A stretch of DNA of 26,345 nt from IMG/VR virus record IMGVR_UViG_3300021139_000121, positions 1-26,345 of that record, one strand, 5' to 3'. Below are positions 1,820 through 17,694 of this stretch, piece by piece. The notes under the pieces are model-generated. The model did no database searches and was not told where the DNA came from. It was given only the letters and a program-made list of their open reading frames with translations. The position numbers and the translations under genes were made by a program. Each line of letters starts with the position of its first letter. Positions within the stretch are counted from its first letter, which is position 1. Source of the DNA: a virus.

Positions 1820-3583
1820 TTATTTATTTTTTGGTGTATTATCTTTTCCAGCTTCCCCGTTTTCAAATGATCCCCCGTCATCCACTGGTTTATTCTCTTC
1901 GGAGTTAGGATTATTATTTACAGGTTCGGTAGAAGTACTATCTGTTGGTTCTGTTGTTTCTGTAGTATCTTCTAACGAACCTTCTGTTTCTCCAGTTGTT
2001 GATCCCTCTGTACTAGAAGTATCTGTACCTGCTGTTTCTGCTGCCTTCTTTTTCCTTTCGTCTGTTTTCTTCTTAAACTTCAAATTAAGTGCCTTGTCTT
2101 CGTCTGTCATTGATAACCATCTATCAATAGCAAAATTCAAAGAGAAATAAGGATTACCATCAGAATCAATTAGACCTGCTATTTTAGCTACTTGATCTTT
2201 TCTTGATGCAAGTAAAGACTTATATTGATTTTCTGCAAAATCATTATCCTTATTATAATCTAAACCTAATTGACCTTTAATAAGCCAATCCTTCTGATGC
2301 TCTGGATAATCTAAACAAAATTGAACCCAAACTGGTTTAACTAAAATATCCTGAAAAATAGAACGTAATCTTGTTACAAATTTAAAGAATCTAATTTCTT
2401 CCTGATCAAGACCTTCTGCGTTTCCTGAATAAGTTCCAGATGTCCCTTTATCATCTCTATCAAATCTTGTATATGGAATTTTAGAGTCCAATTTTAATTT
2501 ATCAGAAAAGAATGCTAATGCCTTTACATCAGTAAATGCTGCTGCATCACCAGAACTACTTAATGGTTTAATATCAGGAGTTCCTAATGGAGTTTTGGGC
2601 ATTAGATAGTTCTTAAAAAACTGAAGATTTGGTCTACCATTAATAGATAGCTCCCCCGAATCTGAATTTAATCTAATATCCTCTTTATAGATACTCATCA
2701 ATTCACCCAATCTTTGTTTAGCTTTTTGAGGAGATTTAGTTCCAATTGGAACTGTCATGGTTAAACGATAACATGAATTCATTACGTTCCATATTATTCT
2801 TGTATGTTCCATAATACGAAGAAGATTAAATGACCTAATAAGTCTTTCTACATAACTAACCCTTGAAGTAGTATTACCTTTTGCGTAAGATAAGTAGATT
2901 ATCTGCGAGTCATATAATTTCCTAGTCATCTGTGGATTATCCGGATACTGAATATAAACTTCTACGAAACTTCCATCTGGCTGTTTTTCCGTAGATGGAA
3001 GTAACGAAGAAGGATCTAATTCCTTAAATCCAATAATATTTTTACCTTTATCATCGAAAATTATTTCAAATGCTAATATACCTTCTACCAGAAATCTTCT
3101 AAAGTAGTGCCATGCTGCAATATCCTGATTAAAACCAAATAGTGTATAAATTTCATTAAATCTATCATGTAATTTCTTTTCCTTTTCTGGCCCTATTCCT
3201 TCTATGTCACTATTATAAAGTCCCGCAAAGAAATTCATTTGATCATAAACTATACACTCATCACAAAGAGTATCCAAAATATATTCTATTTCAGGATTCA
3301 TAGAAAATTGACCAAGATATAATCTTTTGGATTTATAGTCCTTATCGAAATAGGCAATGTATTGTTTGCTTGTTGTATCCGATTTTCTTAATGAGTATAA
3401 GAAATTTTCATCTTCTATTCCACCTTTCTGTAGAAACATAGCTTCGGTAACACCGACAGATTGTGAGTTTTTCACAACCATATCACCATAATACATTCCA
3501 AAAGATCCAATTCTTTTTAGTCCGTCGAGCGCTTTTTTAAAGAAGGTAGTACTACCACCTCCTTGATCTGTAAATCCTGCCAT
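1820..3583 (-). CDS. gp20: Portal protein paralog, gp20-like (copy 1)
   Basis: Second portal-family protein, 587 aa, encoded directly upstream of the other copy. The two align over essentially their whole length: both start MAGF and share IGSFGM, DMV.KNSQ, RIIWNVMNS, SPQKAK..LGELM..YKEDI, NGRPNLQF and KLKLDSKIP. By eye roughly half of core residues match. This copy differs in the segment after GRPNLQFFKNYLMP (TPLGTPDIKPLSSSG..). Its tail, residues about 510-587, is also acidic and Ser/Thr-rich but diverged. The ATG at 3583 overlaps the stop of the upstream gene as TAATG, implying translational coupling. T4 has a single portal gene, so this is a tandem duplication with both copies kept intact. 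It could form a mixed ring, a second connector ring, or replace the other copy in some virions; these are inferences. Confidence 0.92.
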   Translation of the reverse strand: MAGFTDQGGGSTTFFKKALDGLKRIGSFGMYYGDMVVKNSQSVGVTEAMFLQKGGIEDENFLYSLRKSDTTSKQYIAYFDKDYKSKRLYLGQFSMNPEIEYILDTLCDECIVYDQMNFFAGLYNSDIEGIGPEKEKKLHDRFNEIYTLFGFNQDIAAWHYFRRFLVEGILAFEIIFDDKGKNIIGFKELDPSSLLPSTEKQPDGSFVEVYIQYPDNPQMTRKLYDSQIIYLSYAKGNTTSRVSYVERLIRSFNLLRIMEHTRIIWNVMNSCYRLTMTVPIGTKSPQKAKQRLGELMSIYKEDIRLNSDSGELSINGRPNLQFFKNYLMPKTPLGTPDIKPLSSSGDAAAFTDVKALAFFSDKLKLDSKIPYTRFDRDDKGTSGTYSGNAEGLDQEEIRFFKFVTRLRSIFQDILVKPVWVQFCLDYPEHQKDWLIKGQLGLDYNKDNDFAENQYKSLLASRKDQVAKIAGLIDSDGNPYFSLNFAIDRWLSMTDEDKALNLKFKKKTDERKKKAAETAGTDTSSTEGSTTGETEGSLEDTTETTEPTDSTSTEPVNNNPNSEENKPVDDGGSFENGEAGKDNTPKNK

Positions 3584-11935: not shown

Positions 11936-12583
11936 CTAATCATTGAATATTAATTTTATACCAGGAAACATTTCACGGACCTTTATTCTTGCTCTCCGTA
12001 TCCTAGTTGCTACTGCTCTCTTCTTCATACCATGCTTAGTAGCAATATCCTGATATTTCATTTTGTTTAACTCTCTATCTATAAGAATATCCTTATATAT
12101 AGCTGGTAAATCCTGAATTTTATCTACAACATCCGTATAGAGTCCATCCATTTTCATCTCTCGTGTTTGTAAATCCCAATCTGGATCTGAAAAGGATTCT
12201 GCAATACCTGGGGTTAATTCTACATGATCTCCTCTAAACGCTCCTCCTTGTCCACCTTCTCCGTTGTTATCAGCAAGATTTACATTTTCATAAACCAATG
12301 GGGTGTAACGTACCGAGTTCTTCTTAATTAATAAGGACTCATTTCGTGCAATATTATAAGCCCATGTCGAGAAGTTACCTCTATCCGAGTCATATTGCTC
12401 TAATTTTGTCCAAATTTTTTCAAAGGTTTTGGAAACTGCATCCTCGGCAATTTCCTCATCTACTAAAATACCTTTGCAATGATTTAGTAGGCCTGGTTTT
12501 AATCTATCATAGAGTTTTTTAAAGTCCCTTTCTGATGAGGATTGTAAATAATTTTCTGCTAATTCCTGAATGTTTTTTGACAT
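11936..12583 (-). CDS. ECF-type RNA polymerase sigma factor
   Basis: 215 aa with the two domains of a group 4 (ECF) sigma factor. Region 2 spans residues about 21-86: DFKKLYDRLKPGLLNHCKGIL, EDAVSKTFEKIW, and GNFSTWAYNIARNESL with the F-x-x-W-x-Y-x-I-A-R-N core-binding/-10 signature. Region 4 spans about 152-206: LPAIYKDILIDRELNKMKYQDIA, and a helix-turn-helix recognition helix KKRAVATRIRRARIKVREMF. The linker (about 100-140) is long and Gly/Asp-rich. It would redirect host polymerase to phage promoters containing -35 and -10 elements. It lies 5 nt after dCMP deaminase. No anti-sigma gene is adjacent. It differs from the gp55-like factor at 4664-5020, so the phage seems to carry two promoter specificities. 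Confidence 0.85.
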   Translation of the reverse strand: MSKNIQELAENYLQSSSERDFKKLYDRLKPGLLNHCKGILVDEEIAEDAVSKTFEKIWTKLEQYDSDRGNFSTWAYNIARNESLLIKKNSVRYTPLVYENVNLADNNGEGGQGGAFRGDHVELTPGIAESFSDPDWDLQTREMKMDGLYTDVVDKIQDLPAIYKDILIDRELNKMKYQDIATKHGMKKRAVATRIRRARIKVREMFPGIKLIFND

Positions 12584-13341: not shown

Positions 13342-14937
13342 TTAATAATATTTTACCTTGCTGTCAATAGTTAGCAATGGCCCCTTCAATACGCTTAATA
13401 TTTGGAGCATTATTCCTTCCAGCCTTTCAAAATTTGGTGGTTCCTGTGCAGGTACAGTCTTTTCTGGTGATTTAGATATTTCTTGATTCTGATCTGTTTT
13501 AAATATATGTTTTTCCTCGTGTACCTGATTTTGTTTACCAATGGTTGTAACATCCTCTATAATTTCTTGTTTTTGTGGGGGAGCAACATGTTGAACTTCT
13601 CTTAAACTATTTGGTGTAGATCTTTCAACCCTTGGTACTTCAGAAGTTATTTTTAATCCACCAGTAGATTGAATAGAAGGTGTTTGAGAAGAAATAGAAG
13701 TTCCATTAGATTTTTGTAATCCCATCATTTTATTATCGCTAACAATTGGGCTTACTTCATTAATTGGATTAGTTTCATTCCTTAATACCAATCCCTTTTC
13801 TTCTTTAATACCCAACTGACGTTCCATATCATCTATAGGATCATATGTTCCAGAAGGAGTTACAGAGGATGTCGCTTCATTCTTTGGATGTATCTCACTT
13901 TTAATTCCTTCCACCTCGCTATTTCGAACCAGTGGAGTAATTCCAAGTTCCCAACTAATCTCATCTAAAGGATCATATTGTTTGTATTCAGAAACATTTG
14001 TTCTTGATATATTTACTATATTTGGATTAGTTGTATTAATACTCGTAGAGGAATTAGAATTATTAGTATTTGTTACACTTGTTGGAGATGTTAGTTTTGT
14101 TTCTTTATTAGTTATAGATGTATTTTGTGTATTTGAAGGAACTACAATATTTTCTATATTAGCACGAGGAATTTCATTTAATATAGGAGAAGGAGTATTA
14201 TTTATAGGTTCAAATAATTTAGGCTGTACCGGAACAATAGAATTAATTTCAGTAAAGGACCTTGTTTCTGTTTTTATTTGCTCGTTTCTAACATTGGTTT
14301 CATTTATAGTTCCTGTTGGAGAACCTGTATTTTCATTTGAAAATAACTTACCAAGATCCGGTTGTGGATTATTAGGACCTTTATAATCTTCTGTTCTTGG
14401 AAATCCTAATTCCTTTAAATAATTACTTATTGTTAGGTTTTGAGCATCTAATAAATCCTTAAGGTCATTAGATTTTAGACCCTCCGGTAAATCATTTCTA
14501 TCTATTTCTTTTTTTGCTAATTCCCCAATATATTCATTTAGACCCTTTAGATTTTGTCCACTCGCAATTCTTAATTTATTTCCTGCTTCTGAATTATCTA
14601 CATCAAACGGGCTAACTGTTATTGATAAATCAGGGGTTCCCAATATTCCTTTATCAAGAGTTCCCGTTATTTTTTCTATTTCACTTCCTATATTCCTATT
14701 TACCCCATCTATTTTCTCTGGTGTATCATATTTAGTAGAATTAAATCCAAAATCTGGTGTTAATGAATTTCCAATTGCACTACTAAGGATATTATCAAAA
14801 CCATCGTCTGTTACATCAGGATGATTTTTAACAAAATTCTCTTTTTCTTCTGGTCTAGCGGAAGCAAAATAATCAACCCTAGCCTTTTCTGTAGAAAGAT
14901 CTATATCCTTATTTACTTCATTTTTTTCCTCTGCCAT
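13342..14937 (-). CDS. Long, mostly disordered protein with a duplicated linear motif
   Basis: 531 aa, not recognised. Residues about 1-190 contain charged helices (EKARVDYFASARPEEKENFVKNHPDV and GLNEYIGELAKKEIDRNDLPEGL). Residues about 200-500 are rich in Asn, Thr, Ser, Pro and Ile and look disordered. Inside this stretch a motif occurs twice: YDPLDEISWELGI (321-333) and YDPIDDMERQLGI (365-377), each followed by a V-R-N or L-R-N element. The last 30 residues form a hydrophobic helix (LEGIMLQILSVLKGPLLTI). It lies just downstream of the hub gene, where tail phages often encode a tape measure. Its composition is not that of a typical tape measure, so I leave it as unknown structural or assembly protein. 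Confidence 0.8.
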   Translation of the reverse strand: MAEEKNEVNKDIDLSTEKARVDYFASARPEEKENFVKNHPDVTDDGFDNILSSAIGNSLTPDFGFNSTKYDTPEKIDGVNRNIGSEIEKITGTLDKGILGTPDLSITVSPFDVDNSEAGNKLRIASGQNLKGLNEYIGELAKKEIDRNDLPEGLKSNDLKDLLDAQNLTISNYLKELGFPRTEDYKGPNNPQPDLGKLFSNENTGSPTGTINETNVRNEQIKTETRSFTEINSIVPVQPKLFEPINNTPSPILNEIPRANIENIVVPSNTQNTSITNKETKLTSPTSVTNTNNSNSSTSINTTNPNIVNISRTNVSEYKQYDPLDEISWELGITPLVRNSEVEGIKSEIHPKNEATSSVTPSGTYDPIDDMERQLGIKEEKGLVLRNETNPINEVSPIVSDNKMMGLQKSNGTSISSQTPSIQSTGGLKITSEVPRVERSTPNSLREVQHVAPPQKQEIIEDVTTIGKQNQVHEEKHIFKTDQNQEISKSPEKTVPAQEPPNFERLEGIMLQILSVLKGPLLTIDSKVKYY

Positions 14938-14955
14938 TTAAAGATTTATATTATC

Positions 14956-15279
14956 TTATATATTTGCAGGTTTGCCTGGTGTTAAATTAAACACTGAAAC
15001 CAGGCCGGTTGCTTCTTCTGTTCTTTTTTGGTTTTCCTTATCTATTTCATCATTAATCTTCTCTACAATATCCTCATATTCATAAAAGGATAACTTATCT
15101 AATTCAGAGAAAGAGATATTATGGGGATGTTTAGCAAGTTGTCTTCTAATATTAGAGAAGTTCTCCAAAGATATTTGATATACTATAAAGGGATCGAAGT
15201 CCTCCTCGAAATCGAAGGGGGGCGGTGACCTCGGCACCGCATTTTGAACAACTAAGAGCAATTTGGTTCTTCGTAGCAA
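14956..15279 (-). CDS. +1-frame 3' extension of the hub gene, probably expressed by frameshift
   Basis: Open frame of 107 codons overlapping the end of the gp26-like gene in the +1 frame. Its only in-frame start is a TTG at 15279, inside the zinc-finger codons of the hub gene, and there is no Met codon anywhere in the frame. Downstream of the C-run it reads like the natural continuation of the hub protein: FDFEEDFDPFIVYQISLE, then ISFSELDKLSFYEYEDIVEKINDEIDKE. This is a helical, acidic segment similar in style to C-termini of tail-assembly chaperones or hub proteins. A +1 shift at CCC (15220-15218) would give a 402-aa fusion: 316 residues of the hub frame plus 86 from here. I doubt it is an independent gene. 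The alternative is a one-base insertion (real or sequencing error) in a single 402-codon gene. Confidence 0.65.
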   Translation of the reverse strand: MLRRTKLLLVVQNAVPRSPPPFDFEEDFDPFIVYQISLENFSNIRRQLAKHPHNISFSELDKLSFYEYEDIVEKINDEIDKENQKRTEEATGLVSVFNLTPGKPANI

Positions 15280-16165
15280 ACGTAATCATTTTTGTGATTT
15301 GGTCTACTACATTGAACTGCGTATAACTCCAATTCCTTGATTCCCTTTCATAATGGTCATAAAGACCTTCATCTAAATCCCTCCAATTTGGTAAAATGAA
15401 AGTAGAATATCCAGAGAATGCTTCGTCGTACTTTTTGCCACTTTCTTTTTTGGCTTTTAAGATTTTTCTAATCCCTGTTACAATACCAATAGTAGGTATG
15501 AATAATTCAATTGCCTTCTCTCCATTCTTTGGAGTTAGAATATAACATCCTTTATCTGCATCATAATACCTAATTAGTTCTTTTGGTAATTTAAAATTCG
15601 TTAATAAATTGGAGCGTAATTCTATTTCATTACCAAGAATACATTTCTCTTCTTTACATTCCTTAGCTATAGGAAGCATTAATTTATTTTCTCCTTTAGC
15701 AAAAGTAATATCTCTAATAACCATAAAGATATAGAAACGATCTTCTTGGTATAAGTCTTTATAATGTAATACTCCACCACTATATCTAATTTGGGTATTC
15801 TTACTAAGAATGTGATTGATTTTATCATCAACATCAATACGATCATATTCATCTATCGTAGAGTAATGACGAATTTCTGCAACCTCACATGCCCGAATTG
15901 CTATCTCTAATTTATCTGGGTAGCCAAATCCCTCGGAAGGTAGGTTTATTAATGGTAATGGTTTCCATGGAGATTCCATTCCAAGGGTTTCTTGTTCTTG
16001 TGCAAAAGAAGCTTTACCTAAAGGTGAAGTCTTTGGTGGTGATGTTGCCAATGGTGTTTCCTCTATAGGTAAAGATTGTTTTTGTTTCGGGGAATCGTAT
16101 TCAAAGCCGCTGGCTTTCTCTTTTTCCTCTAGTTTCTTTAGTAGACTATCGTTGTAATTTTCCAT
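15152..16165 (-). CDS. gp26-like baseplate hub / tail assembly protein (0-frame product)
   Basis: 337 aa in frame 0. Residues 1-65 are a charged, Pro-rich leader. The core has the pattern of T4-type gp26 hub proteins: PLINLPSEGFGYPDKLEIAIRACEVAEI (70-97), a stretch with INHILSK, DLYQEDRFYIFMVIRDITFAKG (137-158), a Cys pair C170/C175, then NWRDLDEG and a second Cys pair C306-S-K-C309 near the end. Such cysteines commonly hold zinc. The last 21 frame-0 residues (from L317) are Arg/Gly/Ser-rich and look unlike the rest, whereas the +1 frame continues with a sensible acidic helix. The 0-frame product is therefore probably either the short form of a frameshifted pair or a truncation. The ATG at 16165 follows a leader with no Shine-Dalgarno. 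T4 gp26 itself is shorter (about 208 aa), so orthology is tentative. Confidence 0.7.
   Translation of the reverse strand: MENYNDSLLKKLEEKEKASGFEYDSPKQKQSLPIEETPLATSPPKTSPLGKASFAQEQETLGMESPWKPLPLINLPSEGFGYPDKLEIAIRACEVAEIRHYSTIDEYDRIDVDDKINHILSKNTQIRYSGGVLHYKDLYQEDRFYIFMVIRDITFAKGENKLMLPIAKECKEEKCILGNEIELRSNLLTNFKLPKELIRYYDADKGCYILTPKNGEKAIELFIPTIGIVTGIRKILKAKKESGKKYDEAFSGYSTFILPNWRDLDEGLYDHYERESRNWSYTQFNVVDQITKMITFATKNQIALSCSKCGAEVTAPLRFRGGLRSLYSISNIFGELL
15217..15240 (-). promoter_or_regulatory. Candidate +1 frameshift site: C6 run with adjacent GC hairpin
   Basis: In the mRNA sense, codons GCC CCC CTT contain six consecutive C (15222-15217). Slipping +1 after CCC replaces CTT by TTC and joins the hub frame to the downstream frame. 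Directly upstream, overlapping the first C, is a perfect 6-bp GC hairpin: GCGGTG, 7-nt loop, CACCGC (15240-15222). The surrounding 55 nt are about 62 percent G+C by hand count, in a strongly AT-rich genome. CCC-type +1 slippage is known from Listeria phage PSA. Confidence 0.6.
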
Positions 16166-16520: not shown

Positions 16521-17102
16521 TTAGTTGAAAATATCTTCGAACCAGTCTGCTCTTAGATCCATTGTAATTTGATAAAGCTTATCTCCTGCATCATAAGAAA
16601 GTGGCATTGCAGTTATTGCTTCTACCGGGAATACATTATGTAACTTAATTTGTCTGAATACATCACCTTCTTTGTTGAAGATGTTAATAAGCATATAGGT
16701 ACCATTTGCATAAGTACTCTTTATACCCATTGCACCAGTTAATGGATTGTATACAAGGTCGGACCATTGCCTAAGTGTTTTAAATACGTAGTTAGATCCA
16801 TTATCATCCAAGTTAGTTTCAAATACCATTTTAAGTCTAATACCGGTATCTTCCACTGCTGGGCCTGCATATCTCCTGAAAGAGAATTTATAGTGTTGCT
16901 CAACTGGTTTGTTTGGTGTCTTATCTACACTTAAACCTGTCATAGATAAAAGATTTTCAACCAATAGAGTCCTACCACTATTTCCCGCAGGGTTAAATAC
17001 TGCTGGAGGTGGTTGCAAAATAACCTCGAACTGATTTAAATAAATCGGTTCATATAGTGCTACAGCTGCTTTAGCTGAATTAAAATGTGATAGTCCTGCC
17101 AT
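16521..17102 (-). CDS. gp19: Tail tube protein, gp19-like (copy 2)
   Basis: 193 aa (T4 gp19 is 163 aa). By family it polymerises into hexameric rings forming the inner tube inside the sheath. It shares with its upstream neighbour the start MAGLSH, YEPI.LNQFEV, L..TGLSVDK, FKTLRQWSDLVYNPLTGAMG, FNKEGDVFRQI and an ending with an aromatic D-W/Y-x-x-D-I motif (ADWFEDIFN). By eye about 45 percent of residues match. The ATG at 17102 follows an A/T leader with AAATAAAATAAAA and no Shine-Dalgarno, 13 nt after copy 1. A strong terminator follows. One copy may be the main tube and the other a minor ring at the baseplate or neck; the sequence does not say which. Confidence 0.9.
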   Translation of the reverse strand: MAGLSHFNSAKAAVALYEPIYLNQFEVILQPPPAVFNPAGNSGRTLLVENLLSMTGLSVDKTPNKPVEQHYKFSFRRYAGPAVEDTGIRLKMVFETNLDDNGSNYVFKTLRQWSDLVYNPLTGAMGIKSTYANGTYMLINIFNKEGDVFRQIKLHNVFPVEAITAMPLSYDAGDKLYQITMDLRADWFEDIFN

Positions 17103-17115
17103 TTTTTTATTTTAT

Positions 17116-17694
17116 TTAAACCCAAATATCGTCCCAATAATCTACTGCCCATTTCATCCTTATCTTATAAATGTTTGTAGCGCCATTTATATAATTCAAA
17201 TCCATTTCTTTAATGGCTAGCATTGGGAAAGCATCCTTACAAGTGATTTGTCTAAATACATCACCTGCTTTATTAAAAGCCTTAATTACAATAGTACCAG
17301 TATAGTCTTTCTTAAGGCCCATACCACCTGTTAGTGGATTGTATATTAAATCTGACCATTGCCTAAGAACCTTAAAAGCATACATGGAATTATTAATATC
17401 CAAGTTTATTTCAAATTCAATTTCTAAATCTATAAATGTATTAGTCGGTGCAGCTCCAGAGTAGTACCTTTTAGCATTCTTGTACTTCTGCGTTACTTCA
17501 CCAGGGTTTTTATCTACGCCCAAGCCAGAGAGACTAATAACCTGTTCCAGCATGATATTACCATTACCTGGATTACCAGCTGGAACCGGTATAGCAGCCG
17601 GAGGTGTTATAAGAACCTCGAACTGGTTTAAGAATATAGGTTCATACTTTAAAGTAGAAGCCTTTGATGTTGAATAATGTGATAGTCCTGCCAT
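17116..17694 (-). CDS. gp19: Tail tube protein, gp19-like (copy 1)
   Basis: 192 aa, immediately downstream of the sheath gene as T4 gene 19 follows gene 18. Conserved tube features are MAGLSHYSTSKAS, YEPIFLNQFEVLITPP, SLSGLGVDKNPG, FKVLRQWSDLIYNPLTGGMGLK, FNKAGDVFRQITCKDAFP and the ending DYWDDIWV. The loop IPVPAGNPGNGN is longer than in T4. The position next to the sheath makes this the likelier main tube protein, which is inference. The leader carries GAATATATA 7 nt before the ATG and no Shine-Dalgarno. It forms a tandem paralog pair with the following gene and is probably co-transcribed with it. Confidence 0.92.
   Translation of the reverse strand: MAGLSHYSTSKASTLKYEPIFLNQFEVLITPPAAIPVPAGNPGNGNIMLEQVISLSGLGVDKNPGEVTQKYKNAKRYYSGAAPTNTFIDLEIEFEINLDINNSMYAFKVLRQWSDLIYNPLTGGMGLKKDYTGTIVIKAFNKAGDVFRQITCKDAFPMLAIKEMDLNYINGATNIYKIRMKWAVDYWDDIWV

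What the first reader, a model, noticed from the sequence alone, without database searches (positions are those of the whole stretch)
14956..16165. Hub/tail-assembly gene split at a C6 run: candidate programmed +1 frameshift
Frame 0 of the gp26-like gene passes through codons GCC CCC CTT and then runs 20 codons into an Arg/Gly/Ser-rich tail unlike the rest. The +1 frame instead continues with an acidic, helical 86-residue segment that reads as a natural C-terminus. That frame has no ATG at all; its only start is a TTG inside the zinc-finger codons, so independent translation is unlikely. Directly upstream of the slip is a perfect 6-bp GC hairpin, GCGGTG / CACCGC with a 7-nt loop, and the surroundings are about 62 percent G+C in AT-rich DNA. 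Two products (337 and 402 aa) would parallel the gpG/gpGT tail-assembly pairs of other tailed phages. Such pairs are usually -1; +1 at CCC is known in Listeria phage PSA. I know of no such case for a T4-type gp26.
Basis: partly seen in the sequence, partly recalled or inferred. Interest (0 to 1): 0.85.

Follow-up and report, generated by a model that had tools for sequence, protein, structure and literature searches.

The report
Phage tail-chaperone gene using +1 frameshift
A gene for a phage tail-assembly helper protein is built to be read in two ways: most ribosomes should make a short protein and some should slip forward one base to make a longer one, and the same slip signal (three U's and a C behind a small RNA hairpin) is kept in dozens of distantly related large phages.

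Summary
The break is real, conserved and almost certainly programmed, but the slip is not at the C6 run. In all 61 representative relatives (<93% identical; 132 loci), the gp26-like frame ends with its own stop, and the +1 frame overlaps it and extends 52-133 codons beyond (18 in Lak-B5 if TAG is read as stop). The C run is not conserved. What is conserved is a frame-0 UUU followed by C (60/61, 57-58 of them at the same place), usually before a rare codon (CCC or CGN, 51/60). It sits 15 nt after GAG GTC, which lies in the loop of a covarying hairpin. Synonymous constraint starts at CGA UUU C. In four relatives a +1-frame stop lies directly 5' of the UUU.

The frame-0 product matches the T4 gp26/gp51 family (phrog_150), and the +1 domain matches the gp51 C-terminus (phrog_634; 22/39 members, best 8.6e-9). 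This is therefore the short/long tail assembly chaperone pair (like lambda gpG/gpGT). T4 encodes the pair as two genes. Cyanophages, KVP40 and phiM12 show a -1 arrangement with U UUU UUY.

That T4-like phages have such chaperones is published (Vladimirov 2022). I found no report of the +1 UUU_C form with a 5' hairpin. No translation experiment exists.

The parts
15152..16165 (-). frame-0 gene: gp26-like short tail assembly chaperone (TAC-N), 337 aa
   Evidence: ORF; phrog_150 baseplate hub 8.6e-5, 17/40 relatives match, best 6.6e-11; AF2 model finds T4-like baseplate hub proteins in BFVD
14956..15207 (-). +1-frame extension (83 codons + stop): C-terminal domain of the long form (TAC-NC), homologous to the gp51 C-terminus
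   Evidence: conserved FSLFQISL...PYYEFE domain in 39 aligned relatives; phrog_634 in 22/39 members, best 8.6e-9; the window's own copy only E 0.033
15208..15211 (-). inferred slip site UUU C (frame-0 codon TTT then C of the rare codon CGA)
   Evidence: a frame-0 TTT C within 93 nt of the stop in 60/61 representatives; start of synonymous constraint; +1 stop directly 5' of TTT in four relatives
15222..15240 (-). 5' hairpin GCGGTG[CCGAGGU]CACCGC, ending 10 nt upstream of the UUU
   Evidence: covariation in three subfamilies; more stable than codon-preserving shuffles on average (mean z -1.86), though not for the window's copy alone (p 0.39)
15227..15232 (-). GAGGTC: Shine-Dalgarno-like element in the hairpin loop, 15 nt before the slip codon
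   Evidence: GAG exactly 7 codons before TTT in 56/60; GAG and GTC codons invariant in 16 genes although GTC is 4% of Val codons in the window
15217..15222 (-).
15155..15207 (-). dual-coded stretch: both the frame-0 C-terminus and the start of the +1 domain are conserved
   Evidence: synonymous identity 0.80-0.97 against about 0.4-0.6 upstream
13342..14937 (-). next gene downstream, 531 aa; position fits a tape measure protein, but no family match
   Evidence: a gene of about the same length (529 aa) follows gp26/gp51 in P-SSM2

Best explanation
The gene encodes the tail assembly chaperone of a T4-related myovirus. Most ribosomes read frame 0 and make the 337-aa short form. A fraction shift +1 at UUU C: peptidyl-tRNA-Phe re-pairs from UUU to UUC while a rare codon (CGA here, CCC or CGC in most relatives) waits in the A site. 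They then make a 402-aa long form carrying the gp51-type C-terminal domain. A conserved hairpin ending 9-10 nt upstream in most relatives, with GAGGU in its loop, probably stimulates the shift, for example by refolding as the ribosome leaves it or by pausing through anti-Shine-Dalgarno pairing. Shown: conserved two-frame architecture, site conservation, hairpin covariation, homology of both halves to gp26/gp51. Inferred: that slippage occurs, its efficiency, the tRNA movement, how the hairpin acts, and the chaperone roles (by analogy with lambda gpG/gpGT).
For: All 61 representatives keep the overlapping +1 ORF. TTT C is conserved, with CCC or CGN in 51/60 A sites; 35 of all 90 CCC codons in these genes sit there. 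Synonymous constraint begins at CGA TTT. Four relatives have a +1 stop directly 5' of the TTT and no start codon upstream of it in the +1 frame. Hairpin pairs covary: GC10/AU8/GU3 in one subfamily, UA11/CG7/UG3 in another. The +1 domain matches phrog_634 and frame 0 matches phrog_150. T4 gp26 aligns with gp51 6-203 (E 7.5e-22), leaving gp51 204-249 as the extra part. Other T4-like groups place the same two parts in the -1 frame with U UUU UUY.
Against: No expression data. In the window alone the hairpin is no stronger than codon usage predicts (p 0.39). Exceptions: MA9V (TTT C only further 3'), PTm1 (TTT C further 5') and LR756504 (none in the stretch examined). CAA, which is not rare, fills the A site in four. 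An SD-like stimulator is hard to square with Bacteroidota hosts, where SD use is weak (my knowledge). The direct profile comparison of the fused product with gp51 is weak (probability 8.6%).
Confidence: 0.9

Rival explanations
1. The +1 frame is a separate small gene started internally at GTG/TTG or by re-initiation near the frame-0 stop, giving a free gp51-like peptide.
For: GTG codons occur about 26-38 nt upstream of the slip in most relatives; GAGGU could be a ribosome-binding site; annotators list small ORFs there.
Against: Six representatives have no ATG/GTG/TTG in the +1 frame from the last stop to 30 nt past the slip; four have a +1 stop directly 5' of TTT. The conserved +1 domain begins before any usable start in these. 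T4 gp51 carries both parts in one chain.
Confidence: 0.06
2. +1 slip at the C6 run, CCC C.
For: A Pro codon is a known +1 site (Listeria PSA, PMC5009743).
Against: Run absent in relatives; low synonymous conservation there; +1 stop between that position and the UUU in four relatives.
Confidence: 0.02
3. +1 slip further 3', at CTT T (as in prfB).
For: TCC/TCT CTT T is kept in many relatives; it may be the site in LR756504.
Against: The 642-735-kb-phage subfamily has ATT TTC there, others TTA TTC or GTC TTT; constraint starts 21 nt earlier.
Confidence: 0.05
4. Assembly or sequencing error, or a recently broken gene.
For: None found.
Against: Same arrangement in 61 diverse representatives and in a second near-identical assembly.
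Confidence: 0.01

Closest known systems
T4 gp26 / gp51 (tail assembly chaperones of T4-like phages; Vladimirov et al. 2022, title and citing papers only)
   Same: Same protein families for both halves (phrog_150, phrog_634); same short/long logic
   Different: T4 uses two genes, gp51 being an in-frame long copy; here one gene and a +1 shift
Cyanophage/KVP40/phiM12/HTVC008M gp26-gp51 overlap
   Same: Short frame followed by the gp51 domain in an overlapping frame
   Different: -1 frame with U UUU UUC or U UUU UUU just before the stop; poly-T -1 signals in T4-like TAC genes are already reported
lambda gpG/gpGT
   Different: -1 at a slippery heptamer; no sequence homology shown here
Influenza A PA-X +1 site (UCC UUU CGU)
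   Same: UUU followed by a CGN codon, +1 by re-pairing at UUC (motif in papers; mechanism from my knowledge)
   Different: Eukaryotic virus, unrelated gene, no 5' hairpin known to me
HSTV-2 (halophilic archaeal virus) tail gene and Listeria PSA
   Same: +1 frameshifts proposed or shown in tailed-virus structural or assembly genes (PMC5009743)
   Different: PSA: Pro codon, capsid and tail shaft genes. HSTV-2: tail gene, site not compared here

Membership tests
Tail assembly chaperone short/long pair (TAC-N/TAC-NC) | Short ORF plus a long form sharing its N-terminus through a conserved overlapping frame | tested here: met
   61/61 representatives
Tail assembly chaperone short/long pair (TAC-N/TAC-NC) | Lies directly upstream of the tape measure gene | tested here: inconclusive
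   A 531-aa gene follows but matches no tape measure family
Tail assembly chaperone short/long pair (TAC-N/TAC-NC) | Binds the tape measure and tail tube; absent from the virion | not testable with these tools
   Needs experiment
T4 gp26/gp51 family | Frame-0 product matches gp26/gp51 N-terminal profile | tested here: met
   phrog_150 8.6e-5 for the window, 17/40 relatives, best 6.6e-11; Foldseek hits to T4-like baseplate hub proteins
T4 gp26/gp51 family | +1 domain matches the gp51 C-terminal profile | tested here: met
   phrog_634 in 22/39 relatives, best 8.6e-9; window's own copy only E 0.033
Programmed +1 ribosomal frameshift | Conserved site allowing P-site re-pairing in +1 | tested here: met
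   TTT C within 93 nt of the stop in 60/61
Programmed +1 ribosomal frameshift | Slow A-site codon or stop | tested here: met
   CCC or CGN in 51/60; CGA 0.8 per 1000 codons in the window
Programmed +1 ribosomal frameshift | Fusion product detected | not testable with these tools
   Needs mass spectrometry or a reporter
Listeria PSA-type +1 at a Pro codon (CCC) | Conserved CCC at the shift point | tested here: not met

The most novel reading that the evidence does not exclude
A large clade of T4-related phages (Flavobacterium, Tenacibaculum, Chryseobacterium and Prevotella Lak phages, 460-735-kb uncultured phages and many metagenomic ones) uses a +1 frameshift at UUU_C driven by an RNA hairpin behind the ribosome, its refolding pushing the ribosome forward. 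The same chaperone pair would then be made by +1 shift, -1 shift or gene duplication in different branches of one phage superfamily.
Probability: 0.4. Interest if true: 0.75.

Novelty: new variant of a known kind. Interest (0 to 1): 0.62.

Why it matters
Known bacterial +1 sites mostly rely on a stop codon; here the signal is a sense UUU_C followed by rare codons, with a covarying 5' hairpin. That makes it a natural series for testing how upstream RNA structure can move a ribosome forward. It also fills in the evolution of the T4 hub chaperones gp26 and gp51: three decoding solutions to one stoichiometric need. And it corrects annotation in dozens of large phages, where the +1 part is missed or called a separate small gene.

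Tried and rejected
CCC C and CTT T as slip sites, and a -2 shift (no re-pairing possible at the conserved codons), were considered and rejected. A 3' stimulatory structure: 70 nt downstream no more stable than shuffles (mean z -0.12). Direct profile comparison of the fused product with T4 gp51/gp26 was too weak alone; PHROG scans settled it. No PDB fold matched. The 18-sequence alignment was too diverse for a collection scan. The Vladimirov 2022 paper is not held.

Full report
1. Observation. The gene is on the minus strand: ATG at 16165, stop at 15154-15152, 337 aa; the +1 frame is open to a stop at 14956. The hairpin, C6 run and G+C figures hold. The +1 ORF has no ATG but several GTG/TTG codons. 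A second assembly (L002, one mismatch in 7,011 nt) has the same sequence, so a local assembly error is unlikely.

2. Conservation. Scans of IMG/VR and of the phage collection gave relatives from 100% down to about 20% identity. After thinning, 61 representatives were examined: all have frame 0 ending in its own stop and a +1 ORF that overlaps it by 59-140 nt and runs 52-133 codons further (18 in Lak-B5 under table 11; its stop there is TAG, and reading TAG as Gln, as in some Lak phages by my knowledge, restores the frame). The -1 frame shows no such regularity. Both the frame-0 C-terminus (G-G-I/L-R-S-L-Y/F...LL*) and the +1 domain (FSLFQISL...) are conserved.

3. Where the slip is. Three tests agree. 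(a) A frame-0 TTT followed by C is found in 60/61 within 93 nt of the stop; in 57-58 of them it stands at the same place, while MA9V and PTm1 have it elsewhere and LR756504 has none. GAG lies exactly seven codons earlier in 56/60. (b) In 16 genes of the window's group, identical-codon use at synonymous positions is about 0.4-0.6 upstream, 0.26/0.46/0.48 at GCC CCC CTT, 1.00 at CGA and TTT, and 0.80-0.97 from there to the stop. (c) In L037, L040, L099 and L120 the +1 frame opens only at -2 relative to the TTT, because a +1 stop lies directly 5'. The next codon is CCC (35), CGC (12), CGA (3) or CGT (1) in 51 of 60; CCC makes up only 90 of 20,024 codons in these genes, 35 of them at this site. 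In the window CGA is 0.8 per 1000 codons. tRNA-Phe can pair with both UUU and UUC, so a +1 move is chemically easy; a -2 move is not. The resemblance to the influenza PA-X site UCC UUU CGU is one of motif, not of descent.

4. The hairpin. In the window group one pair is GC in 10, AU in 8 and GU in 3 sequences, with no mismatch. In the 642-735-kb-phage group another is UA in 11, CG in 7 and UG in 3. In a third group three pairs change on both sides. Slid versions pair 16-77% of cells against 94.7-98.4% for the structure. Codon-preserving shuffles give mean z -1.86 over 60 genes, 29 with p <= 0.05; the window's own copy is not significant (p 0.39). The stem registers differ between groups, but GAGG(U) stays in the loop and the 3' arm ends 9-10 nt before the UUU. 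No 3' structure was found. How the hairpin acts is inference: refolding at the mRNA exit could favour forward movement, or the SD-like loop could pause the ribosome. The latter is doubtful in Bacteroidota.

5. What the proteins are. Frame 0 matches phrog_150 (8.6e-5; 17/40 relatives, best 6.6e-11), to which T4 gp26 and gp51 both belong. The +1 domain matches phrog_634 in 22/39 relatives (best 8.6e-9), the family of the gp51 C-terminus (1.2e-23); the window's own +1 part alone scores only 0.033. T4 gp26 aligns over its length with gp51 residues 6-203 (E 7.5e-22), leaving gp51 204-249 as the extra domain. A model of frame 0 (pLDDT 81) finds T4-like baseplate hub proteins in BFVD with E about 1e-9 to 1e-4. 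T4 gp26 and gp51 are listed as hub assembly chaperones and gp51 is absent from the virion (PMC3004832).

6. The wider family. P-SSM2, S-PM2, HTVC008M, phiM12 and KVP40 carry the same two parts with the second in the -1 frame and U UUU UUC or U UUU UUU just before the first stop. T4 and Campylobacter phage CP220 have a short gene and a separate in-frame long gene. So one chaperone pair is produced by +1 shift, -1 shift or duplication.

7. Prior knowledge. [quoted passage not shown] I could not read the paper and know it only through citing papers. These report separate short and long genes in some T4-like phages (PMC10885494) and poly-T -1 signals in T4-like chaperone genes (PMC12846349). I found no paper on a +1 UUU_C form with a 5' hairpin, but the search covers open-licence papers only.

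8. Verdict. It is a new variant of a known kind.

Noticed in passing
25-1812 and 1820-3583 (-): Two adjacent, diverged T4-type portal genes (595 and 587 aa, both Portal_T4 with E about 1e-55 to 1e-59). Two portal paralogues side by side is unusual.
   Followed up: no
16521-17102 and 17116-17694 (-): Two tandem tail-tube-like genes (phrog_32623; phrog_45/phrog_3629).
   Followed up: no
L220, L229-L232 (P-SSM2, S-PM2, HTVC008M, phiM12, KVP40): gp26/gp51 in overlapping -1 frames with U UUU UUC or U UUU UUU before the first stop; annotated as two separate genes in P-SSM2 and KVP40.
   Followed up: partly
L048 (Prevotella phage Lak-B5): The +1 domain is open only if TAG is read as an amino acid, so the frameshift product also depends on the phage's altered code.
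   Followed up: no
L041, L043, L047: Exceptions to the fixed TTT C position: MA9V (ATT TTT CTA further 3'), PTm1 (CGG TTT CAA further 5'), LR756504 (no TTT C in the stretch examined); the site may have moved in these lineages.
   Followed up: no
11936-12583 (-): Sigma-factor-like gene (phrog_1740, 2.7e-20) inside the structural region.
   Followed up: no
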